A stretch of DNA of 64,000 bases from Conexibacter sp. SYSU D00693 (lineage in GTDB: Bacteria > Actinomycetota > Thermoleophilia > Solirubrobacterales > Solirubrobacteraceae), in NCBI RefSeq assembly GCF_017084525.1, contig NZ_CP070950.1, positions 1,054,001-1,118,000 of the forward strand, given 5' to 3'. The notes under the pieces were generated by a model that made no database searches, had not been told where the DNA came from, and saw nothing but the letters and a program-made list of their open reading frames with translations. The translations under genes and the position numbers were made by a program. This document shows, piece by piece, positions 1,980 through 44,647 of this stretch. Positions within the stretch are counted from its first letter, which is position 1; every line of letters begins with the position of its first letter.

Positions 1980-4046
1980 CTACGCCGCGGCCGCCTCCGC
2001 CCGGGTGGCGTCGACGACCCGCTGGGCGAGGTGCGCGGGCACCTCCTCGTAGCGCAGCAGCTCCATCGTGTAGTCGCCCTGACCGCCGGTCAGCGCCCGC
2101 AGGTCCGGGGCGTAGGTGAGCATCTCGGCCATGGGCACCTCGGCCTTGACCTCGGTGGTGCCGCCCGGGCCGGGCTCCATCCCCTGCGGCCGCCCGCGCC
2201 GCGAGTTGAGGTCCCCGATGACGTCGCCCACCGACCCCTCGGGCACCGACAGGGTCACGAGCATCACCGGCTCGAGCAGCGCGGCCTTGGCCTGCTCCAT
2301 CGCGTCCTTCATCGCCAGCGAGCCGGCCATGCGAAACGCCTGCTCGGACGAGTCGACCGAGTGGTACTGGCCGTCGAAGAGGGTGACCTTGACGCCGCGC
2401 ACGGGGAAGCCGCCGACCGGGCCGTGCTGCAGCGCGTCGCGCACGCCCTTCTCCACCGCGGGGATGAAGCCGTTCGGGATCACGCCGCCCTTGATCGCGT
2501 CCACGAACTCGAAGTCGCCGTCGGGCAGGGGCTCCACCTCGATGTGGCAGTCGCCGAACTGGCCGCGGCCGCCCGACTGCTTCTTGTGGCGGCCGTGGGC
2601 CTTGGCGCTGCCGCGCAGCGTCTCGCGGTAGGGCACCCGCGGAGGCTTGAGCACGACCTCCGCGCCGAAGCGCGACCGCAGGCGGTCCACCACGACCTCG
2701 ACGTGGACCTGCGAGAGCCCGGCGACGATCTGCTCGCCGGTCTGCGGGTCGCGGTGCAGGTCGATCGTCGGGTCCTCCTCCTGCAGGCGGCGCAGCGCGC
2801 TGAAGACCTTGTCCTCGTCGCCCTTGGCCGCCGCCTCCATCGCGAACGCCATCACGGGCGCGGGGAGCTTGACCTGCGGCATGCGGATCGGCTCGTCGCG
2901 CATCGCCAGCCAGTCGCCCGCCCGCGTCTCCTTGAGCTTGGCCACCGCGCCGATGTCGCCCGGCCCGAACTCGTCGACGTGGACGGTGTCGCCGCCCTTG
3001 TACGAGAGCAGGTGGCCCAGGCGCTCCTTGCAGTGCGCGCGGGTGTTGAGCACCTGCGTGTCGCCGCGCATCGTCCCCTGGTAGACGCGGAAGAGGTTGA
3101 TCCGGCCGGCGAACTGGTCGGCGCGGGTCTTGAAGACGTAGGCGAAGAGCTCGGCGTCCTCGTCGGGCTCCAGAGTGACCTCCGGGAGCTCCATCGCGCC
3201 GTGCTTCACGGGCGAGGGGAGGTCCTCGACGATCGCGTCGAGCAGGCGGTTGGTCCCGAGGTTGCGCGTGGCGACGCCGCAGGTCACCGGGAAGACGTGG
3301 CCGTGGTTCGTGCCGTCCTTGAGCGCGGTGACGATCTCCTCGTGGGCGATCTCCTCGCCCTCGAGGTAGCGCTCCATGAGGCTGTCGGAGACCTCGCAGA
3401 CCTCGTCCATCAGCTTCTCGCGGTACTCCTCGGCCTGCGCCCGGAGCTCCTCGGGGATCGGGACCTCGCGGCAGGCGTCGCGCTCGGCCGTCGCGTACTC
3501 GTAGGCCTGCATGTCGACGAGGTCGATCACGCCACGCACCTCGTGCTCGGTGCCGATCGGGATCTCCGTCGCGACGACGTGCTGGCCGAAGGCGTCCTTG
3601 AGCTGGTCGAGGGTGCGGAAGAAGTCGGCGCGCTCGCGGTCGAGCATGTTCACGAAGACCAGCCGCGCGATGTCCAGCTCGGCGGCGCGCTCCCACAGCC
3701 GGGCGGTCGAGACCTCGACGCCCATGACCGCGTTGACGACGAAGACCGCGGACTCGCAGACCCGCAGCGACCCGAGGGCATCGGCCACGAAGCTCGGCTC
3801 GCCGGGCGTGTCGATGAGGTTGATCTTGCGGTCCTGCCACTCGAACGTGGAGAGGGCCGCGCCGATGGACATGCCCCGCGCCTGCTCGTCGGGGTCGACG
3901 TCGGAGACCGAGGTCCCGTCGGCGACGCTGCCGAGGCGCTGGGTGGCGCCGGCCTGGAACAGCAGGGCCTCGTACAGCGAGGTCTTGCCGCTTCCGCGGT
4001 GGCCGACGAGGGCGACGTTGCGGATCCGATCCGCCGCCTTGTGCAT
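1980..4046 (-). CDS. fusA2: Elongation factor G-like GTPase (EF-G2 type)
   Basis: A 688-residue translational GTPase with EF-G domain order: G domain, beta-barrel domain II, domains III and IV, and a C-terminal domain V. The P-loop GHRGSGKT is at residues 15-22 and DTPG at 79-82. The G4 motif reads NMLD (133-136), so the usual lysine of NKxD is replaced by methionine. The start is secure, because GAGGAG lies 6 nt upstream of the ATG. The divergence from canonical EF-G, the altered G4 motif and the isolation from the str operon (rpsL-rpsG-fusA-tuf) mark it as the EF-G2 paralogue common in actinobacteria, whose role in translation is not settled. It follows the sigma-factor gene with a gap of 66 bp. 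Confidence 0.9.
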   Translation of the reverse strand: MHKAADRIRNVALVGHRGSGKTSLYEALLFQAGATQRLGSVADGTSVSDVDPDEQARGMSIGAALSTFEWQDRKINLIDTPGEPSFVADALGSLRVCESAVFVVNAVMGVEVSTARLWERAAELDIARLVFVNMLDRERADFFRTLDQLKDAFGQHVVATEIPIGTEHEVRGVIDLVDMQAYEYATAERDACREVPIPEELRAQAEEYREKLMDEVCEVSDSLMERYLEGEEIAHEEIVTALKDGTNHGHVFPVTCGVATRNLGTNRLLDAIVEDLPSPVKHGAMELPEVTLEPDEDAELFAYVFKTRADQFAGRINLFRVYQGTMRGDTQVLNTRAHCKERLGHLLSYKGGDTVHVDEFGPGDIGAVAKLKETRAGDWLAMRDEPIRMPQVKLPAPVMAFAMEAAAKGDEDKVFSALRRLQEEDPTIDLHRDPQTGEQIVAGLSQVHVEVVVDRLRSRFGAEVVLKPPRVPYRETLRGSAKAHGRHKKQSGGRGQFGDCHIEVEPLPDGDFEFVDAIKGGVIPNGFIPAVEKGVRDALQHGPVGGFPVRGVKVTLFDGQYHSVDSSEQAFRMAGSLAMKDAMEQAKAALLEPVMLVTLSVPEGSVGDVIGDLNSRRGRPQGMEPGPGGTTEVKAEVPMAEMLTYAPDLRALTGGQGDYTMELLRYEEVPAHLAQRVVDATRAEAAAA

Positions 4047-4112
4047 GCCTGACTCCTCTCGGTGGGGCGCTTGTGCCGACCCTAACCAGGTCCGCGCCCT
4101 CCGCGGGAGAAC

Positions 4113-4892
4113 TCAGTCCGGGTCGCTGGTGAGGCGCGAGCGCAGCCGCAGCACCGCCTTGGTGTGCAGCTGGGAGATGCGCGACTCGGTGACCCCGAGG
4201 ACCTCACCGATCTCGCGGAGGGTGAGGTTCTCGTAGTAGTAGAGGGCGACCACGAGCTTCTCGCGCTCGGGCAGCCGCGCGATGGCGTCGGCGACCCGGT
4301 CCTTGAGCTCGGTCTGGTCCATGATCGCCGCGGGGTCGGGCGCGTTGTCGTCCGTGAGCGTGTCCAGCAGGGAGACCGAGTCCCCCGAGGAGTCGCTCAC
4401 CGACCACAGCTCGTCCAGGGCGGCGACGGTGGAGTTGGAGATCTGCAGCAGCGAGGCCTGGAAGTCGTCGACGCTGATGCCGAGCTCCGTGGCCATCTCC
4501 TCGTCGGTGGGCGCGCGCTGCAGCTGGTGCTCGAGCTTGGAGTTGGCGCGCTCGATCTCGCGGGCGCGGGCGCGCACGGAGCGCGGGACCCAGTCCAGCG
4601 AGCGCAGCTCGTCGATGATCGCGCCCTTGATGCGGGTGATCGCGTAGGTCTCGAACTTGATCTCGCGCTCGAGGTCGAAGCGCTCGATCGCGTTGATGAG
4701 CCCGACGAGGCCGTAGGAGATGAGGTCGGCCTCCTCGACGTGCGCGGGCAGGCCGGCGGCCATGCGGCCCGAGACGTACTTGACCAGCGGCGAGTACGCG
4801 ACGACCAGTCGCTCGCGCGCACGCTCGTCACCCGTGGTCTTGTACCTGCGCCACAGGTCCTTGAGCTCGATGGCCTTGACGTTCGTCTCCAT
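4113..4892 (-). CDS. RNA polymerase sigma factor, FliA/WhiG (sigma-28) family
   Basis: A 259-residue sigma-70 family protein with regions 2, 3 and 4. Region 2 contains LVKYVSGRMA, EEADLISYGLVGLINAIERFD and KFETYAITRIKGAIIDELRS, a FliA/WhiG signature. Region 4 has the helix-turn-helix LTLREIGEVLGVTESRISQ near the C-terminus. Family members drive flagellar genes (FliA) or developmental genes (WhiG). No flagellar gene is present in this window, so the regulon cannot be inferred. The ATG is preceded by GGGGGAT. It lies 29 bp downstream of the xerC/D-like gene and upstream of EF-G2, probably one transcript. No anti-sigma factor gene is adjacent. Confidence 0.93.
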   Translation of the reverse strand: METNVKAIELKDLWRRYKTTGDERARERLVVAYSPLVKYVSGRMAAGLPAHVEEADLISYGLVGLINAIERFDLEREIKFETYAITRIKGAIIDELRSLDWVPRSVRARAREIERANSKLEHQLQRAPTDEEMATELGISVDDFQASLLQISNSTVAALDELWSVSDSSGDSVSLLDTLTDDNAPDPAAIMDQTELKDRVADAIARLPEREKLVVALYYYENLTLREIGEVLGVTESRISQLHTKAVLRLRSRLTSDPD

Positions 4893-4921
4893 GATCCCCC
4901 GACAGCCTGAAGTCGCCCAGC

Positions 4922-5857
4922 CTACGCCCTGGGATGGGCATCCCGGTAGACGGCCTTCAGGCGCGCGGACTCTACACGGGTGTAGATCTGGGTCGTGGAG
5001 ATGGTCGCGTGGCCCAGCAGCTCCTGGATCGAGCGCAGGTCTGCCCCGCCGTCGAGCAGGTGCGTGGCGAACGAGTGGCGCAGGGCGTGCGGGTGCACGC
5101 CCTGCAGCGGCGGACCGCCCGCCGCGGCCGCCTTCTGGGCCCAGGCGCGCAACCGGCGACGCACGTCGGAGGTCGACAGCCGCTTGCCGGACTTCGTCAG
5201 GAACAGGGCGCGCTCGCCGTCGCCGGCGGCCAGCGCGGGGCGCCCGCGCGCGGTCCAGCGGCCGATCGCGGCCATCGCGTGCTCGCCGACCGGCACGACG
5301 CGCGTCTTGTCGCCCTTGCCCTCGACGCGCACCTCCTCGCTGTCGGGATCGACGCTGTCGAGGTCCAGCGAGCAGAGCTCCTCGGCGCGCAGGCCCGAGG
5401 CGTAGGCGAGCTCGAGCAGCGCGCGGTCACGGAGGTCCAGCGGCGTGGTGGCCGGGATGCGGTCCAGCAGCGCGGCGACCTCGTCGGCCTTGAGCACCCG
5501 CGGCAGGCGCTTGGGCTGCTTCGGGGCCGGGACGAGGTCGGCGGGGTTGGCCTCGAGGTGGCCGTGCTCGCGCAGGGACCGGAAGAGCTGGCGCAGCGCC
5601 GCGAGCTTGCGCGCGACGGTGGGCGGCTGGGCGCCGCGCTCGGACAGCACGGCGGCGTAGCGGCGCAGCTGCCGGGTCGTCACGCCGCCGGGCCCGATGC
5701 CGCTGTCGGCCGCCCAACGCGCGAACTGGCCGGCGTCGACGCCGTAGGCCCGGCGGGTGCGCTCCGCCGCTGCGCGCGTGCGCAGGTCGCGGTCGAAGAG
5801 GGTCAGGGCGTCGCGCCACGCCGGCGGCAGCGGCGGCGGCGTACCCTCGGGGTCCAT
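4922..5857 (-). CDS. xerD: Tyrosine recombinase, XerC/XerD family
   Basis: About 311 residues from the ATG at 5857; an upstream start at 5884 would add nine residues. The N-terminal SAM-like DNA-binding domain (RTRRAYGVDAGQFARWA) is followed by the catalytic domain. The catalytic arginine is in YASGLRAEELCSL, the second box is HALRHSFATHLL, and the nucleophile tyrosine is in TQIYTRV close to the C-terminus. In bacteria these enzymes resolve chromosome dimers at dif with FtsK. The length and the single-copy core-gene setting fit Xer rather than a phage integrase; no attachment-site repeats, excisionase or phage genes are nearby. Whether it is XerC or XerD cannot be decided here. Its start codon overlaps the divergent gene at 5856. 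Confidence 0.88.
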   Translation of the reverse strand: MDPEGTPPPLPPAWRDALTLFDRDLRTRAAAERTRRAYGVDAGQFARWAADSGIGPGGVTTRQLRRYAAVLSERGAQPPTVARKLAALRQLFRSLREHGHLEANPADLVPAPKQPKRLPRVLKADEVAALLDRIPATTPLDLRDRALLELAYASGLRAEELCSLDLDSVDPDSEEVRVEGKGDKTRVVPVGEHAMAAIGRWTARGRPALAAGDGERALFLTKSGKRLSTSDVRRRLRAWAQKAAAAGGPPLQGVHPHALRHSFATHLLDGGADLRSIQELLGHATISTTQIYTRVESARLKAVYRDAHPRA

Positions 5858-6173
5858 GGGTCGGTTCTTCATCCGGACGGACACCGGTCAGGTGGCGACG
5901 CAGCGCCAGCTCATCGAGACGGGCGTCGCGCCGCCCCACGACGAGCCGCCGCGGCCGTGGCACCCGGTGCGGGCGCCGGGCGACGCGTCGACGCTCTGGT
6001 ACGCGGTCCTGCGCCGCAAGGTCAAGGGCGTGTTCATCGGCACGATGACCTTTCGCCACGGCGACCACCACGCCTCCCTGCTGGCCGACGGCTGGGAGGA
6101 GGTCGCCCCCGAGGAGATCAAGCCCGACCCCGGGTCGCCGGCGCCCGAGATCGCGCCGGGGCCGATGTCGTAG
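5856..6173 (+). CDS. Conserved-looking hypothetical protein, 105 aa
   Basis: The protein starts MGRFFIRTDTGQ and continues through VLRRKVKGVFIGTMTFRHGD to an acidic, Pro-rich C-terminus. The core has beta-strand and turn character with a Trp/Tyr-containing middle (DASTLWYAVLRR). No signal peptide or membrane helix is seen. The ATG at 5856 is preceded by GGGG at about 5 nt. The start overlaps the start codon of the divergent recombinase gene within CCATGG, so promoters and ribosome sites of each gene lie inside the other. No family recognised. It ends at a strong hairpin shared with the convergent L,D-transpeptidase gene. Confidence 0.6.
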   Translation: MGRFFIRTDTGQVATQRQLIETGVAPPHDEPPRPWHPVRAPGDASTLWYAVLRRKVKGVFIGTMTFRHGDHHASLLADGWEEVAPEEIKPDPGSPAPEIAPGPMS

Positions 6174-6232
6174 AGGTGGTCCTTCGGGGCTGAGCTCCGT
6201 CCGGGCGCGTCGGCGGGTCCGGGCCCATCCGT

Positions 6233-6269
6233 TGGCGGATCGTCCGCCTGGAGAGCGGAGGATCCGCCA
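6233..6269. terminator. 15-bp stem between convergent genes
   Basis: Arms at 6233-6247 and 6255-6269 are complementary over 15 bp with one mismatch and a 7-nt loop. The element lies between the convergent stops at 6173 (+) and 6338 (-). It has no T-run, as is usual for terminators in GC-rich actinobacteria, so it could serve both strands. Confidence 0.65.
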
Positions 6270-6337
6270 CTCGATGCCCCGGCGGCGACCCACGTGGCCC
6301 CGACCGCCCACTCCCGCGCTCGCGGCTCGCCGAGCGC

Positions 6338-7378
6338 CTAGGCGATGTAGATCGGGGCGCCGACCGGCACGCGGTCGTACAGGTCGATCACGTCGGCCAC
6401 GCGCATGCGGATGCAGCCGTGCGAGGCGGCCGAGCCGATGGACCCCTCGTCGGAGGTCCCGTGGATGCCGGCACCGTCGTAGATCCCCATCCAGCGCGCC
6501 TTGAGCGGGTTGTTGGGCGCGCCGCCCGGGATGACCTGGCCGGCCAGGGAGCCCGCCCAGTCGGACATCGGCACGTTCCAGGCCGGGTTCACGGCCTTGT
6601 TCTGGATCTTGTAGAGGCCGGCCGGCGTGTCCATGCCGACCTGCCCGACGGCGATGCCGTAGGTCTTGACCGGCTTGAGGCGCTTGTAGAGGACGAGCTT
6701 GAAGGAGGAGCGGTTGGCGTACAGGACCGTCCCGTAGCGCTCCTCGAGCTCGTCGGTGCTGACCCGCGGGGCCACCTTGCGGGTGTGGGCCGACATGCGC
6801 CGCGGCGCGGTCGTCGAGACGAGCGCCTGGCGCAGCTGGCGGTGCAGCGCGGAGGCCTCGACCTCGAGGCCGGCCCGGCCCGGGACCTTCCGCGGCCCGG
6901 ACGCCGTGAACCTCACGGTGGCGTCCTGGCGCGGCCGGTCGACCTCCTTGCGGACCTTGTCCAGGAGCCGGACGACGGCGGCCTTCGAGTAGCGGACCTC
7001 GGGCTGGAGGTCGACGTCCTTGGAGCCGCCGGTCAGCCCGCGCCAGGAGCGGCTGAGGACGGTGCCCTCGCGGCTGACGTCCAGCGCGTGGTCGACCGAG
7101 GCGACGACGTTCGTGCTGAGCCGCGCCTCGCGCGGGCCCAGGATCCAGTGGAGGTTGCCGTGGTCGACGCGCACGGGCTGACGCAGGCGGTCGACCACCC
7201 GCTCCTGCAGGCGCCGGATGGCCTGCTCGCGGTCCAGGCCGCCCACGTCGACGCCCGCGACCTTGACCCCCTTGGCGAGGGTGTCGCGCCGGCTGTGGTC
7301 GTAGACGATGAGGGCCGCCGTGGCCGCCAGCACGAGTGCACCGACGACGGCGACGGAGAGCAGGGGTGATCGCCGCAT
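6338..7378 (-). CDS. L,D-transpeptidase (YkuD family) with N-terminal membrane anchor
   Basis: A 346-residue protein. Residues about 5-27 form a single hydrophobic helix, giving a membrane anchor or uncleaved signal. A peptidoglycan-binding-like region (GVDVGGLDREQAIRRLQE, then repeats of similar type) follows. The C-terminal YkuD domain ends with the catalytic motif SHGCIRM, with Cys at about 322 and His at about 320, preceded by IHGTS. These enzymes form 3-3 crosslinks in peptidoglycan or attach proteins to it, acting outside the membrane. The domain order matches actinobacterial L,D-transpeptidases with PG_binding_4-like regions. It lies 117 bp downstream of the epimerase gene in the same direction and may have its own promoter. 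Confidence 0.9.
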   Translation of the reverse strand: MRRSPLLSVAVVGALVLAATAALIVYDHSRRDTLAKGVKVAGVDVGGLDREQAIRRLQERVVDRLRQPVRVDHGNLHWILGPREARLSTNVVASVDHALDVSREGTVLSRSWRGLTGGSKDVDLQPEVRYSKAAVVRLLDKVRKEVDRPRQDATVRFTASGPRKVPGRAGLEVEASALHRQLRQALVSTTAPRRMSAHTRKVAPRVSTDELEERYGTVLYANRSSFKLVLYKRLKPVKTYGIAVGQVGMDTPAGLYKIQNKAVNPAWNVPMSDWAGSLAGQVIPGGAPNNPLKARWMGIYDGAGIHGTSDEGSIGSAASHGCIRMRVADVIDLYDRVPVGAPIYIA

Positions 7379-7495
7379 GGGTCCTGGAGGAGACGCCCAA
7401 GAGCGTACGGCGTCGCGCTTCAGGTGCCAAGTCCCTGCAAAGCCGCAGATCGCTGCACGCGATCTTGCAGGCCACGGGCGGTCGCCGAGCGCCGC

Positions 7496-8872
7496 TCAGC
7501 GCGACGTGGCGCCCTGCACCGCGAGCAGCCCGTCGATCGCCCGGACGACGCTCTCCCGGCCGGCGTGGGACTCCTCGTGCGCGCGCAGCGCCGGCAGGTC
7601 CGCCGGGTCCAGGGACGGCAGCAGGGCGATGACCTCCTCGGCGTCGAGGTCGTCGTAGCCTGCCGGCGCGCCGTTGCGGCGCCCGGTCCCCAGCTCGCCC
7701 GACGGCCGGCGGTCGCCCGGCGCGGTGTTCTGCGGAGCGCCCTCGCCCTCGAGCAGGTCGATCGCGCGGCGCAGCTCGGCGAGCTGGCGGGGCGAGACGC
7801 GCCCGAGGCCCGGCGAGACGTTGTCCTTGCGCACCGACGGGCTGAAGCGCAGGAACTCCTCCACGGCCGCCTCGTAGCGGTAGGGGCCCGTGCCCTGGCG
7901 CATGAGCGGGTGCAGCCGCTGGTGCTCGCGGAGCTTCAGGACGGTCTCGCGCGTCGTGTAGCGGTAGCGGTAGCCCGTGGCCTTGAAGCGGCGGTTGTCG
8001 AGCCCGCGCCCGAAGCGCAGCAGCCCGAGCATCTCGGACGAGACGCGCACGCCGGCGCGGCGCAGCTGGGCGGCGACGATCCCCGTGCCCAGCGGCGGCA
8101 GGACGGGCAGGTTGGCCTTGCCCAGCAGGCCGATGACCTCGCTGAGGGCGAGGACCCCGTCGGCGGCGCAGTTGAAGACGCCGGGCAGGTCGTGGTGGAC
8201 CGCGTGCTGCAGGCAGCCGGCGATGTCGTCCTCGTGGATGAACTGGTAGCGCGGGTCGAAGCCGAGGATCGTCGGGATCGCCGGCAGCCCGAGGTAGCGC
8301 GTGTGGGACGTGTTGACGTCCGGTCCCAGCCCGTTGGCGAAGCGCAGCGTCGTGACGATCGTGTCCGGGTGCTTCTCGGCGAACTCGCGGAGGTTGGCCT
8401 CGGCCTCGACGACGTCGCGCTCGATGGGGGTGCGCGGCGGGTGCGGCCGGCGCATCTCCTCGGTGAAGAACGCGGGGTCGTCCTGCTCGGCGCCGTAGTA
8501 GTGGGCGCTGGACTTGAAGACGACCTTGCGCACCGGCGAGTCGGCGCCGCCGCACGCCGCCAGGACGTTCATGGTCCCGATGACGTTGTTCTCGTGCGCG
8601 CGCCGGGGCGTCGTGACGATCGAGTCGACCACGAGGCGCGTGTCGACCACCGTGTCGATCTCCGCGGCGTCCACGATGCGGCGGATGAGCGAGTGCGAGT
8701 CGGAGACCTGGACGAACTCCGTGCGCTCCAGCGGGACCTTCGGTGGGCGGCGGTCGATCCCGATCACCGTCTCCACCGCGGGGTCCTGCTCGAGGGCCTG
8801 GGCCAGGCGCCCGCCCCAGTAGGTCGACAGGCCCGTGACCAGGACCCGGCGGCTCGTGCGCTCCTGGTCCAT
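7496..8872 (-). CDS. NAD(P)-dependent epimerase/dehydratase (extended SDR)
   Basis: About 458 residues from the ATG at 8872. The N-terminal Rossmann segment is VLVTGLSTYWGGRLAQAL followed by IGIDRRPP, so the usual GxxGxxG is modified to GLSTYWGG. A YYGAE segment provides the probable catalytic tyrosine region (KSSAHYYGAEQDD). The C-terminal 130 residues are an extension rich in Pro, Arg and acidic residues, ending in a small helical segment. The stop of the upstream acyltransferase and this ATG share one base (TGATG), which indicates translational coupling. The pairing of an SDR epimerase with a PlsC-type acyltransferase suggests a shared role in envelope lipid or glycolipid synthesis; the substrate is unknown. 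Confidence 0.82.
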   Translation of the reverse strand: MDQERTSRRVLVTGLSTYWGGRLAQALEQDPAVETVIGIDRRPPKVPLERTEFVQVSDSHSLIRRIVDAAEIDTVVDTRLVVDSIVTTPRRAHENNVIGTMNVLAACGGADSPVRKVVFKSSAHYYGAEQDDPAFFTEEMRRPHPPRTPIERDVVEAEANLREFAEKHPDTIVTTLRFANGLGPDVNTSHTRYLGLPAIPTILGFDPRYQFIHEDDIAGCLQHAVHHDLPGVFNCAADGVLALSEVIGLLGKANLPVLPPLGTGIVAAQLRRAGVRVSSEMLGLLRFGRGLDNRRFKATGYRYRYTTRETVLKLREHQRLHPLMRQGTGPYRYEAAVEEFLRFSPSVRKDNVSPGLGRVSPRQLAELRRAIDLLEGEGAPQNTAPGDRRPSGELGTGRRNGAPAGYDDLDAEEVIALLPSLDPADLPALRAHEESHAGRESVVRAIDGLLAVQGATSR

Positions 8873-40703: not shown

Positions 40704-43700
40704 CTAGGCGGCGGCGCCCTCTTGGGCGGCCAGGTAGTCCCGCGGCAGCTTGCGCGAGACGACCTTCGAGACGCCGTCGCCGCCCATGGAGACGCCGTAC
40801 AGCGTGTCGGCCGCCTCCATCGTGCGCTTCTGGTGGGTGACGACGATGAACTGCGCGTGGTCGCGGTACTCGCGCAGCAGGTCGAGGAAGCGCGAGATGT
40901 TGAGGTCGTCCAGCGCCGCCTCGACCTCGTCGAGGATGTAGAACGGGCACGGCTTCGCGAGGAAGACGCTGAAGAGGAAGGCGATGGCGGTCATCGACTT
41001 CTCGCCGCCCGAGAGCAGCGTCAGGCGCTTCATCGCCTTGCCGGCGGGCGTGATCTCGATCTCGACGCCGACGTCGTCGTCGGGGTCGAAGCCCGAGGCG
41101 CCCTCCGCGGCCTCGGCGTCGGCCGCGGCCTCCGCCGCCGCCTCGGCGGCGACCTCCGCCGTCCCGTCGCCGCTGTCGGCCTCCTGGCCGCCCAGCACCG
41201 GCTTGGGCCCGGACTCCTCCCGCACGAGGCGCAGCCGCCCGCGGCCGCCCGGGAAGCAGTGCGCGGCGAGCTCCTCGAAGTTCTTGGCCGCCGCCGCGAA
41301 GGTCTCCTCGAAGGTCTCGCGGATCTGGCGGTCGGTGTCCTTGATGAACGTGCGCAGCTCGCGCAGCGCCGTCTCGAGGTCGGTGCGCTGGCGCTCGAGC
41401 TCCTCGACGTGGGCCATGGCCTCGTCGTACTCCTGCTTGGCCAGCGGGTTGACCGGCCCCAGCTGCTCACGGCGCTTGACCAGCCGCTCCACGCGGACGC
41501 GCAGCGCCTGGCGCTGCTCCTCGTCCAGCGGCTCGGTGGCCGGCTCCGGCGCCAGCCCGAGCTTCTCGCCCAGGCCCTCGAGCTCGTGCGTGGCCTCCGC
41601 AGCCTGGTCGCGGACCTGCTGGGCGCGGACCTCGGCGCGGGTGACGGCCTCGCCGCGCTCGCGCAGCATCGCCTGGATGCGCGCCTCCTCGGCGGCGCAG
41701 CTGCGCAGCTCCTGGGCGACGCCCTCGCCCTCGGCCCGGTCGGCGGCCAGCTCGGCCTCGACGGCCTCGACGCGGTTGCGCACGGCGTCGAGGGCCAGCT
41801 CCAGGACGACGGCGAGCTTCTCGGCCTGCGGCACGAGCGCCTCGTCGCGGGCCAGCGCGGCCTGCAGGCCGGCGATCCGCCGCCGGCGCTCCTCGCGCTC
41901 CTTGGCGGCCCGCTCCGCGACGCGCTTCTCGGCCGCCAGCTCGCCCTGCAGCTGCGCGCGGCGCACGGCCGCCTCGCCCTGCTCGGGGGCCTTGCGGCGC
42001 TGTTCGATGAGCCACGACGCCTGGCGCTCGGACTCGCGCGCCTCGGCGTGTGCGCGCTCAGCCTCGCGGCGCTCGCGCTCGGCCTCCTCGCGCGACGCGT
42101 CGGCCGCGGCGACCGCCTGGCGGGCGGCGTCGACGGCGCCCAGCGCCTCCTGCTCGGCGCGCACCGCCGTCTCGCTGTCGGCGATGAGCGCATCGCGCCG
42201 GTTGCGCTCGGCGAGCACGCGCTCCACGCCGCCCTCGGCGGCCTGGCGCAGCTCACCCGTCGCGCCGACCCATGCGCGGCCCGCGGTGGTCACCGCGGTG
42301 CCGCGGAACGACGCCGGCACGACCCCGAGGTCCTCGACGACCCAGGTGTCGGCCAGCAGCCGGCGGGCCAGGGACGCCGCCGGGTCGGGCCCGCGGACGA
42401 GCTCGGCCAGGCAGCGCGCCCCGTCGACCGGGGCGCCGCCGCCGGCGACCGCCTCGATGGACGACGAGACGAGCGCGCGGCCGCCGTCGGCGCCGGCACC
42501 GTCCAGCAGCGCGCCGCCGGCGGTCCGGTCCTCGACGATCGCCGCCGCGAGCCGCCCGTCGAGCGCCGCCGACAGCGCGAGCTCGAAGCCCGGCTCGACC
42601 TCCAGCTCGTCGGACAGCGACGCCGCGCCGCCCGTCGCCGACCTAGCGTGCGAGCGCAGGAACTGGTTGGCCCGCGCGAGCTCGGCACCGACGCGCGCGG
42701 CCTCCCGGCGCGCGCCCTCGGCCGAGGACTCCGACGCCCGCCGCGCCTGGCGCGCGACCTCGCACGCCGCCTCGGCCTCGGCGAGCTTCGACCGCCGCTC
42801 CTCGACCGCCGCCTGCGCCTCCTGCGCCCGGGCGGCCGCCGCCACGCGCTGCTCCTCCAGCGCCGCGAGCTCGCGCTCGAGCGTCGCGGCACGGTCCTCG
42901 TCGAGCTGGACGAGCGCCGCCTCCAGCGCCTCGATGCGCTCGCGGCCCTGCTCGTCGGGCTGGTCCTCGGCCTCGGCGGCCTGCAGCGCGCGCAGCTGCT
43001 CGCCGCGGCGCACGACGCGCTCGCGGACCGTCTGCGCGGTCTCCTGCGTGCGCTCGAGGCGCAGCTCGATCCGGTCCGCCGAGCCGCGGGCGCGCTCGAC
43101 GCGCCGCGCCAGCCCCTCGCGCTGCTCGGTGCGCTTGGCCATCGCCTGCTCGGCGGCCTCGCGGCGCACCGCGACCTCGCGCAGCGCGACCTCGGCCTCG
43201 TCGCGGGCCGCCCGTGCGGCCGTCGCGGCCGTCTCGGCGGTCCCCAGCTCCTCGCGGCGCGCCCGGACGGCGTCGCGCGCGAGCTCCCAGCGGGCCTCGA
43301 GCGTCTGGCGCTCCAGGCGCGCGTGCAGCTCGGCGGCCTCCGCCTGGCGCTTGAGCGGGCGCAGCCGCGAGCGCGCCTCGCGCTCGACGTCCAGCGCGCG
43401 GTCCAGGTTGTCCTGCGTGCGCTCGAGCTTGAGCTGCGCCCGGCGGCGGCGCTTGCGGTGCTTGCCCAGGCCCGCGGCTTCCTCGATGAGCAGCCGGCGG
43501 TCCTTGGGCTTGGAGGTGACGATCGCCTCGACGCGCCCCTGGGAGACCACGGAGTGCATCTCCTTGCCCAGGCCCGTGTCGGACAGGACCTCGAGCACGT
43601 CGGCCAGGCGGCAGCGCGCGCCGTTGAGCCGGTACTCGCCGTCGCCGTTGCGGTCCAGGCGCCGGACGATGGAGATCTCGCCCATCGGCAGGTCCACCGA

Positions 43701-43967
43701 GGCGTCGGCGTTGTCGAGGACGATCTCGACCTCCGCGCTCGAGCGCGCCTGCACGCCGCGCCCGCCGCCGAAGATGACGTCCTGCATCGACTGGCCGCGG
43801 ACGGCCAGGGGCGACTGCTCGCCCATCGCCCACAGCACCGCGTCGGTGACGTTGGACTTGCCCGACCCGTTCGGGCCGACGATGACCGAGACGCCCGGGG
43901 CGAACTCGAGCTTCGTGCGGTCGGGGAAGGACTTGAAGCCCTTCAGGGCGATGGACTTGAGGTGCAT
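40704..43967 (-). CDS. smc: Chromosome segregation protein SMC
   Basis: About 1087 residues from the ATG at 43967. Walker A GPNGSGKSN is at residues 31-38. Long coiled coils with Ala, Glu, Arg and Gln follow, then a hinge near residues 460-600 with a conserved Gly-rich region. The C-terminal head has the signature LLSGGEKSM and Walker B YILDEVEAALDDLN. It is shorter than typical SMC (about 1150-1190). Between the C-terminal coil and the signature there is an acidic insertion (SGDGTAEVAAEAAAEAAADA and following, about residues 922-970). It organises and segregates chromosomes with ScpA/ScpB, which are not in this window. The start codon shares one base with the rnc stop. Confidence 0.95.
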   Translation of the reverse strand: MHLKSIALKGFKSFPDRTKLEFAPGVSVIVGPNGSGKSNVTDAVLWAMGEQSPLAVRGQSMQDVIFGGGRGVQARSSAEVEIVLDNADASVDLPMGEISIVRRLDRNGDGEYRLNGARCRLADVLEVLSDTGLGKEMHSVVSQGRVEAIVTSKPKDRRLLIEEAAGLGKHRKRRRRAQLKLERTQDNLDRALDVEREARSRLRPLKRQAEAAELHARLERQTLEARWELARDAVRARREELGTAETAATAARAARDEAEVALREVAVRREAAEQAMAKRTEQREGLARRVERARGSADRIELRLERTQETAQTVRERVVRRGEQLRALQAAEAEDQPDEQGRERIEALEAALVQLDEDRAATLERELAALEEQRVAAAARAQEAQAAVEERRSKLAEAEAACEVARQARRASESSAEGARREAARVGAELARANQFLRSHARSATGGAASLSDELEVEPGFELALSAALDGRLAAAIVEDRTAGGALLDGAGADGGRALVSSSIEAVAGGGAPVDGARCLAELVRGPDPAASLARRLLADTWVVEDLGVVPASFRGTAVTTAGRAWVGATGELRQAAEGGVERVLAERNRRDALIADSETAVRAEQEALGAVDAARQAVAAADASREEAERERREAERAHAEARESERQASWLIEQRRKAPEQGEAAVRRAQLQGELAAEKRVAERAAKEREERRRRIAGLQAALARDEALVPQAEKLAVVLELALDAVRNRVEAVEAELAADRAEGEGVAQELRSCAAEEARIQAMLRERGEAVTRAEVRAQQVRDQAAEATHELEGLGEKLGLAPEPATEPLDEEQRQALRVRVERLVKRREQLGPVNPLAKQEYDEAMAHVEELERQRTDLETALRELRTFIKDTDRQIRETFEETFAAAAKNFEELAAHCFPGGRGRLRLVREESGPKPVLGGQEADSGDGTAEVAAEAAAEAAADAEAAEGASGFDPDDDVGVEIEITPAGKAMKRLTLLSGGEKSMTAIAFLFSVFLAKPCPFYILDEVEAALDDLNISRFLDLLREYRDHAQFIVVTHQKRTMEAADTLYGVSMGGDGVSKVVSRKLPRDYLAAQEGAAA

Positions 43968-44647
43968 CAGGCCAGGGCCTCCTCGTCGATGGCCTCGAGC
44001 GCGACCCGGGCGGCCTCCTGCTCGGCGTGCTTCTTGGAGCGCCCGCTGCCGCGGCCGACCTCCTCCCCGTCGACCCGGGCCGCCACGTCGAACGTCCGGT
44101 CGTGCGGGGGCCCGTGCTCCTCCACCACCTCGTACTCCACCACGGCCCCGCGCTGGGCGAGCCGCTCCTGGAGCGTCGACTTGAAGTCCACGGGGAACTG
44201 CAGCGCCTGCTCGATCTCCGGCGCGAAGCACTCGACGACCGCCTCGGCGACCGTCTCGTAGCCCGACTGGAGGTAGCACGCCCCGATGACCGCCTCGGTG
44301 ACGGACGCCAGGACGCGCTCGGTCTCCACGAGCGACGCCGCGTGCTCGGCGCCCTCGGGCGCCGTCTCGCGCATGCGCCGCGGGACCTCGAGGCGCTCGG
44401 CGACGCCCCGGCAGGACGAGCCCGAGACGACCTGGGCGCGGATCTTCGTCAGGCGGCCGGCGCCGTAGCGCTCGGCCTCCAGGCGCGGGTACAGGTGCGA
44501 GGTGATCGCGAGTCCCAGCACGCTGTCACCGAGGAAGGCCAGACGGGCGTAGGAGTCCGCGCGACGCGGGCTCCACGACGCGTGGGTGAAGACCTGGCGG
44601 TAGAGGTCCTCGGGCAGCGCGTCGAGCAGGGCGGTCAGCCGCTCCAC
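43967..44647 (-). CDS. rnc: Ribonuclease III homologue with two catalytic acidic residues replaced
   Basis: A 226-residue protein with the N-terminal RNase III domain and C-terminal dsRBD (FKSTLQERLAQRGAVVEYEV, SGRSKKHAEQEAARVALEAI). GTG start. The signature reads ARLAFLGDSVLGL instead of ERLEFLGD: Ala34 and Ala37 stand where family members have Glu, the second being catalytic (E40 of Aquifex). D41 is kept. In the second half, LASVTEAVIGA gives Ser115 where the catalytic Asp (D107 of Aquifex) is expected, and Glu118 is kept. So two of four metal-binding acidic residues appear lost. It could be catalytically weak or a dsRNA-binding remnant. It sits in the core cluster acpP-rnc-smc. Confidence 0.9.
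   Translation of the reverse strand: MERLTALLDALPEDLYRQVFTHASWSPRRADSYARLAFLGDSVLGLAITSHLYPRLEAERYGAGRLTKIRAQVVSGSSCRGVAERLEVPRRMRETAPEGAEHAASLVETERVLASVTEAVIGACYLQSGYETVAEAVVECFAPEIEQALQFPVDFKSTLQERLAQRGAVVEYEVVEEHGPPHDRTFDVAARVDGEEVGRGSGRSKKHAEQEAARVALEAIDEEALA

What the first reader, a model, noticed from the sequence alone, without database searches (positions are those of the whole stretch)
43967..44647. RNase III homologue lacking two catalytic carboxylates
The canonical ERLEFLGD is ARLAFLGD here and the second carboxylate position (LADxxE) is LASVTE. Relative to Aquifex RNase III, E40 is Ala37 and D107 is Ser115, while D44 and E110 remain as D41 and E118. The dsRBD is intact. A dsRNA-binding remnant, a weak enzyme or use of other ligands is possible.
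Basis: partly seen in the sequence, partly recalled or inferred. Interest (0 to 1): 0.6.

Follow-up and report, generated by a model that had tools for sequence, protein, structure and literature searches.

The report
Solirubrobacterales RNase III, half-lost catalytic site
The only RNase III (the enzyme that cuts double-stranded RNA) of this bacterium, and of its whole order, has lost half of the four acidic residues that normally hold the catalytic metals, yet the other two never change, and an arginine has appeared where Dicer-type enzymes keep a catalytic lysine, so it is probably a still-working enzyme with a rebuilt active site rather than a dead relic.

Summary
Confirmed and extended. 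The gene at 43967-44647(-) is the single, syntenic (acpP-rnc-smc) RNase III of this genome. E40 and D107 (Aquifex numbering) are Ala37 and Ser115; D44 and E110 remain. E37 and E64 are also gone (Ala34, Ala63), so 4 of the 6 acidic residues lining the catalytic valley are lost. It is not an error: E40A is fixed in 104/104 distinct Solirubrobacterales sequences (one change on the tree, no reversal) and absent from the 147 other rnc aligned. D44 and E110 never change (0 changes, 126-row tree). In 96/96 Solirubrobacterales sequences with Ser115, position 111 is basic (94 Arg, 2 Lys), exactly the place of the eukaryotic catalytic lysine (D minus 4). D44+E110 are the two protein ligands of MgB in E. 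coli RNase III; the loss hits the MgA side. The 16S and 23S processing stems, the classical RNase III substrates, persist with compensatory changes. Best reading: a working dsRNA endonuclease with a MgB-centred site helped by Arg111. Alternatives: weak enzyme with ordinary metal use (high Mg or Mn), or dsRNA-binding protein. No cleavage assay was possible. New variant of a known kind.

The parts
43967..44647 (-). rnc, RNase III, 226 aa, GTG start; its TGA stop overlaps the ATG of smc by one base
   Evidence: Pfam PF14622/PF00636/PF00035 above gathering; TIGR02191 164 bits, just under cut-off 166.25
44225..44611 (-). RNase III nuclease domain (residues 13-141)
   Evidence: Pfam; AF2 model pLDDT 89; VIA Z 18.8 to M. 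tuberculosis RNase III nuclease domain, 18.2 to E. coli 7r97
44546..44548 (-). Ala34, position of Aquifex E37 / E. coli E38 (RNA-contacting valley)
44537..44539 (-). Ala37, position of Aquifex E40 / E. coli E41 (direct ligand of MgA)
   Evidence: one change on tree
44525..44527 (-). Asp41 = Aquifex D44 / E. coli D45, retained (ligand of MgB)
   Evidence: 0 changes
44459..44461 (-). Ala63, position of Aquifex E64 / E. coli E65 (RNA-contacting valley)
44315..44317 (-). Arg111, gained basic residue at the place of the eukaryotic catalytic lysine (four before the D107 position)
   Evidence: (aligned to Lys of Drosha RIIIDb, His of RIIIDa)
44303..44305 (-). Ser115, position of Aquifex D107 / E. coli D114
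44294..44296 (-). Glu118 = Aquifex E110 / E. coli E117, retained (shared ligand of MgA and MgB)
   Evidence: 0 changes
43994..44182 (-). dsRNA-binding domain (residues 156-218), intact
   Evidence: Pfam dsrm 63 bits
44655..44900 (-). acyl carrier protein gene (acpP) immediately upstream; places this rnc at the usual bacterial acpP-rnc-smc site
   Evidence: ORF list; named from sequence
40704..43967 (-). smc (chromosome segregation ATPase) immediately downstream, starting inside the rnc stop codon
   Evidence: ORF list and sequence; named from sequence

Best explanation
This is the orthologous housekeeping RNase III of the order Solirubrobacterales, still a dsRNA endonuclease for pre-rRNA, but with a rebuilt active site. 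The lost carboxylate E40 is the ligand that defines the MgA site, and D107 beside it no longer needs to be acidic; the retained pair D44+E110 are the two protein ligands of MgB, the ion that holds the 3'-O leaving group. Arg111, one helical turn before position 115 on the same face as E118, sits where eukaryotic RNase IIIs keep a catalytic lysine that contacts the nucleophilic water or scissile phosphate, and probably takes over part of MgA's charge role. Loss of E37 and E64 (the positions mutated in the engineered E. coli E38A and E38A/E65A/Q165A 'bacterial Dicer' enzymes) should tighten RNA binding and favour cooperative, about 22-nt cutting of long dsRNA. SHOWN: residues, their fixation, association of 111 with 115, invariance of D44/E110, conserved rRNA stems, RNase III fold of the model. 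INFERRED: catalysis, metal count, role of Arg111, product size.
For: D44 and E110: 0 changes in a 126-row tree and in its 56-row Solirubrobacterales part (23.7 substitutions per site in total; median position 9 changes); of the nuclease-domain acidic positions of the window protein these two are the only invariant ones. E40A: one origin, 104/104, no reversal; a phylum-wide DNA pattern scan of 396 genomes finds it in 21 Solirubrobacterales genomes plus one match in another actinobacterial genome with a different motif, RLAFFGD. Basic residue at 111: 98/104 in the E40A order, 96/96 when 115 is Ser, 2/7 when 115 is acidic; elsewhere 6/147, never with D at 115. HMMER alignment puts R111 on the Lys of Drosha RIIIDb and the His of RIIIDa, the known eukaryotic position, D-4 (K112/D116 in Entamoeba RNase III, PMC5357909; K1806/D1810 in Dicer, PMC13334501). 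MgA ligands are E41+E117, MgB ligands D45+E117, and D114 is not a direct ligand in the E. coli post-cleavage structure (PMC9291653). Single E. coli E41A and D114A mutants keep weak activity in excess Mg while D45A and E117A are inactive in vivo (PMC8708148 Table 1). 16S and 23S processing stems in 15 and 14 genomes: 22-26 of 27 and 16-21 of 21 pairs, with compensatory changes at 9 and 7 columns. dN/dS 0.14-0.17 between most same-genus pairs, 0.35-0.41 for pairs with the more divergent window gene. Only one RNase III domain in the genome.
Against: No cleavage data. E. coli E41A and D114A are each weak, and no E41A+D114A double mutant was found in the papers read. Simulations of Dicer favour two directly bound Mg ions (PMC13334501). 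The tree-based test of the 111/115 association has only 3 independent contrasts and cannot reach significance. Invariant D44 and E110 could be structural. The rRNA stems also contain a conserved CTTTGAAAAC-type motif that may be kept for another reason, and stems could be cut by another RNase.
Confidence: 0.5

Rival explanations
1. Weak but ordinary RNase III: still two (or three) metal ions, with waters or backbone in place of the lost ligands, working at high Mg or with Mn; Arg111 is neutral or only helps RNA binding.
For: E. coli single mutants E41A and D114A act in excess Mg; Mn rescues D44A and E116D of C. jejuni RNase III; D107 is N, A, G or E in many other Thermoleophilia and N in some other Actinomycetota families, so that site is soft by itself.
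Against: E40 is otherwise invariant (147/147 outside the order) and was lost once, on the same stem as most of the E64 loss and the gain of Arg111, which looks like a package rather than simple weakening.
Confidence: 0.25
2. Pseudo-enzyme: nuclease activity lost; the dimer now binds dsRNA, for example as a pre-rRNA chaperone or a regulator, like mitoribosomal mL44 or chloroplast RNC1.
For: At most two of four metal carboxylates remain; valley charge per dimer falls from -12 to -2 in the window protein, which suits RNA binding without metal; the dsRBD is conserved; mL44 and RNC1 show that RNase III folds can lose catalysis (mL44 from own knowledge).
Against: D44 and E110, the two residues E. 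coli needs most, never vary while other former catalytic sites do (34: 14 changes, 63: 7, 115: 5, against 0 for 41 and 118). No replacement RNase III in the genome, although the processing stems are kept.
Confidence: 0.22
3. Sequencing or assembly error, or pseudogene.
For: None found.
Against: Open frame, purifying selection, same changes in 104 distinct sequences from independent assemblies including complete genomes.
Confidence: 0.01

Closest known systems
Canonical bacterial RNase III (E. coli, Aquifex aeolicus, M. tuberculosis; TIGR02191)
   Same: Same fold, domain order, nuclease domain plus dsRBD, acpP-rnc-smc place, D44 and E110, and the D154/K156/Q160/E161 linker and dsRBD residues
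   Different: E37, E40, E64 and D107 lost; Arg gained at D107-4; two-residue insert before the E64 loop in about three quarters of the order
Engineered E. coli RNase III E38A and E38A/E65A/Q165A ('bacterial Dicer', PDB 7R97)
   Same: The window protein has Ala at all three equivalent positions (34, 63, 164)
   Different: The engineered enzyme keeps E41, D45, D114 and E117; Ala at the Q165 place is common in Actinomycetota and not special
Eukaryotic RNase III (Dicer, Drosha, Rnt1p, Dcr1) with catalytic Lys
   Same: Basic residue at the same alignment column, four before the D107 position
   Different: Arg instead of Lys; eukaryotes keep all four carboxylates (D to N in some RIIIDa) and a further Asn that is absent here (Gly76)
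Catalytically dead RNase III folds (mitoribosomal mL44, chloroplast RNC1)
   Same: RNase III fold with missing catalytic residues; mL44 chains match the model at Z about 15
   Different: Here D44 and E110 are strictly kept and it is the only, orthologous RNase III of the cell
RNase III of other Thermoleophilia (Gaiellaceae and related families)
   Same: D107 already replaced by A, N, G or E in most; Cys79 and Tyr33 shared
   Different: E37, E40 and E64 intact; basic residue at 111 rare (5/77)

Membership tests
Bacterial RNase III (rnc orthologue, RIIID + dsRBD) | RIIID followed by one dsRBD | tested here: met
   Pfam PF14622, PF00636, PF00035 above gathering
Bacterial RNase III (rnc orthologue, RIIID + dsRBD) | RNase III fold | tested here: met
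   AF2 model pLDDT 89; Foldseek and VIA top hits all RNase III
Bacterial RNase III (rnc orthologue, RIIID + dsRBD) | Orthology: single copy, acpP-rnc-smc neighbourhood, vertical tree | tested here: met
   (f1-f9 each one side of a branch; only the small f10 is split)
Bacterial RNase III (rnc orthologue, RIIID + dsRBD) | NCBIfam TIGR02191 equivalog cut-off (166.25 bits) | tested here: not met
   164 bits, marginally below
Canonical two-metal RNase III active site | Four carboxylates E40, D44, D107, E110 | tested here: not met
   A37, D41, S115, E118
Canonical two-metal RNase III active site | Metal-dependent staggered dsRNA cleavage | not testable with these tools
   needs purified protein
Eukaryotic-type RNase III with catalytic Lys and Asn | Basic residue at D107-4 | tested here: met
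   R111, aligned to Drosha RIIIDb Lys; 98/104 basic in the order
Eukaryotic-type RNase III with catalytic Lys and Asn | Conserved Asn (Dicer N1742; residue 76 by my count) | tested here: not met
   Gly in 87/104, never Asn
Pseudo-RNase III (mL44/RNC1 type) | No cleavage activity | not testable with these tools
   needs assay
Pseudo-RNase III (mL44/RNC1 type) | Relaxed constraint on all catalytic residues | tested here: not met
   D41 and E118 have 0 changes over 23.7 substitutions per site

The most novel reading that the evidence does not exclude
A whole bacterial order has converted RNase III from two-metal to essentially one-metal catalysis: MgB on D44+E110, with an arginine that arose at the eukaryotic catalytic-lysine position replacing MgA, and with the valley charge removed so that it dices long dsRNA into about 22-nt pieces, a natural counterpart of the engineered bacterial Dicer.
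Probability: 0.25. Interest if true: 0.75.

Novelty: new variant of a known kind. Interest (0 to 1): 0.6.

Why it matters
RNase III is the textbook two-metal dsRNA nuclease and the same fold family as Dicer and Drosha. A lineage in which evolution removed E40, E64 and D107 but froze D44 and E110 is a natural experiment on which ligands are really needed, and the associated gain of Arg at the eukaryotic lysine site makes the question of metal versus cationic side chain directly testable with a few point mutants. It also warns that the annotation 'RNase III' does not guarantee the classical active site, and offers natural variants that may be useful as siRNA-type reagents.

Tried and rejected
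(1) Sequencing error or isolated mutation: rejected by relatives. (2) Second, canonical RNase III in the genome: none with PF14622 or PF00636. (3) A new acidic ligand elsewhere: the scan of lineage-specific conserved polar residues gave T67, Q72, R111, S115 and S157, no new Asp or Glu. (4) Simple duplex folding of whole leader and spacer was no better than shuffled sequence because of high GC, and the gapped helix search was likewise uninformative for the own 16S stem; the ungapped, motif-anchored comparison across genomes was decisive. (5) Tree-based independent contrasts for the 111/115 association: too few events. (7) Literature searches for RNase III with Thermoleophilia or Solirubrobacter returned nothing.

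Full report
WHAT IS THERE. The minus-strand ORF 43967-44647 encodes a 226-aa protein with an RNase III domain and a dsRBD. It lies directly after acpP and its stop codon overlaps the start of smc, the usual bacterial neighbourhood. The genome (one contig, 4.43 Mb) has no other RNase III domain. Two further acidic valley residues are also gone: A34 (E37; E. coli E38) and A63 (E64; E. coli E65).

HOW GENERAL IT IS. I collected rnc from 60 relatives, 150 genomes of the class, 60 of the phylum and 80 named public contigs and aligned 251 distinct sequences, not every genome of each set being fetched. E40 is Ala in 104/104 Solirubrobacterales (families f1-f4; named contigs include Conexibacter, Paraconexibacter, Patulibacter and Thermoleophilaceae) and Glu in all 147 others. 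E64 is lost in nearly all of the order (a few keep Glu) and is Glu everywhere else. D107 is Ser in most of the order and Glu or Asp in seven; in the rest of the class it is mostly Ala (f5, f7, f9), Asn (f8) or Asp (f6), and in other Actinomycetota it is Asp or, in several families, Asn. E37 varies widely only within the order (elsewhere only Gly in one distant family, f22, and one Asp in f10). D44 and E110 never vary.

HISTORY. On a 126-row protein tree built without these columns, f1 to f9 each form one side of a branch, so descent is vertical; E40A is a single change, D107 changes 16 times, E37 16, E64 8, D44 0 and E110 0. Within the order the tree length is 23.7 substitutions per site and the median position changes 9 times, yet D41 and E118 do not change; of the 34 acidic residues scored in the window protein only these two and D154 and E161 (linker and dsRBD start) are invariant. 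dN/dS is about 0.14-0.17 between most same-genus pairs and higher (0.35-0.41) for comparisons with the more divergent window gene.

AN ASSOCIATED GAIN. Position 111, four residues before the D107 site on the same helix (model helix 110-128), is basic in 98/104 of the order: 94 Arg and 2 Lys among the 96 with Ser115, but only 2 of the 7 with Asp or Glu at 115. Outside the order it is basic in 6 of 147, never together with Asp at 115. These counts are not phylogenetically independent: only 3 supported contrasts exist, all in the expected direction or neutral, which is not significant. HMMER aligns R111 with the Lys of Drosha RIIIDb and the His of RIIIDa. Eukaryotic RNase IIIs have a conserved catalytic Lys there (K112 with D116/E119 in Entamoeba; K1806 with D1810/E1813 in Dicer), described as not conserved in bacteria, which touches the nucleophilic water or the phosphate and whose mutation reduces cleavage (PMC5357909; PMC13334501).

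WHY THESE RESIDUES. In the E. coli post-cleavage structure MgA is held by E41 and E117, MgB by D45 and E117, and D114 makes no direct contact; E38 and E65 are RNA-facing, and the valley has 12 acidic side chains per dimer and no others (PMC9291653). The window protein therefore keeps the full MgB ligand pair and loses the MgA-specific one; its valley charge drops from -12 to -2 counting Arg111. Single E. coli mutants agree: E41A and D114A are weak but active in excess Mg, D45A and E117A are not active in vivo (PMC8708148). Mn rescues some C. jejuni mutants (PMC3839596).

SUBSTRATES ARE KEPT. The genome has one rRNA operon. In 15 genomes the 16S leader pairs with the spacer (22-26 of 27 positions), and in 14 the spacer pairs with the 23S trailer (16-21 of 21), with compensatory changes at 9 and 7 columns; for example CTCAACAG/CTGTTGAG in f1 against CTCGGCAG/CTGCCGAG in f2. 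The own stems pair at 25/27 and 20/21. These are the classical RNase III targets, so a dsRNA-cutting activity is probably still wanted, though another nuclease could act there.

INTERPRETATION. Best: an active, orthologous RNase III with a MgB-centred site assisted by Arg111 (about 0.5). Rivals: weak enzyme with ordinary metal use (0.25), pseudo-enzyme that binds dsRNA (0.22). The most novel reading, one-metal catalysis with Dicer-like product size, is about 0.25 and overlaps the best reading. Whether catalysis occurs is untested; everything rests on comparative sequence evidence and published work on other RNase IIIs.

MEMBERSHIP. By homology, fold, domains, synteny and tree it is the rnc orthologue. 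It fails the canonical four-carboxylate active site and sits just under the TIGR02191 cut-off (164 against 166.25), so it should be called a variant RNase III, not a canonical one. By inference it works partly like eukaryotic RNase III at position 111, but it is not a member of that group (no Asn).

Noticed in passing
L204 (own genome C1:890000-899500) 2751-7914, minus strand: Single rRNA operon with a 435-base 16S-23S spacer and no tRNA gene in it.
   Followed up: partly
L204-L216 and L218, 16S and 23S processing stems: Both stems share the motif CTTTGAAAAC (or CCTTGAAAAC) with a conserved G.G mismatch at the same place in f1, f7 and f5 genomes, but a G-C pair in family f2 (and in one f1 23S stem): possibly a cleavage-site or antitermination signature.
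   Followed up: partly
L209 (G030) and L217 (G133), 23S rRNA: 23S spans about 3.7 kb and 4.5 kb instead of 3.0 kb by end mapping, suggesting insertions or intervening sequences, or mis-mapped ends.
   Followed up: no
Loci of families f5, f7, f8, f9 and several other Actinomycetota (e.g. L226, L240, L262, L266): D107 of RNase III is replaced by Ala or Asn in many lineages that keep E40; I found no report of this softness for bacteria in the papers held.
   Followed up: partly
L252 and L253 (genome G224): One actinobacterial genome carries two RNase III genes, both with a canonical active site.
   Followed up: no
L268-L271 (family f22): A distant, long-branched actinobacterial RNase III group with Gly at E37 but otherwise canonical residues.
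   Followed up: no
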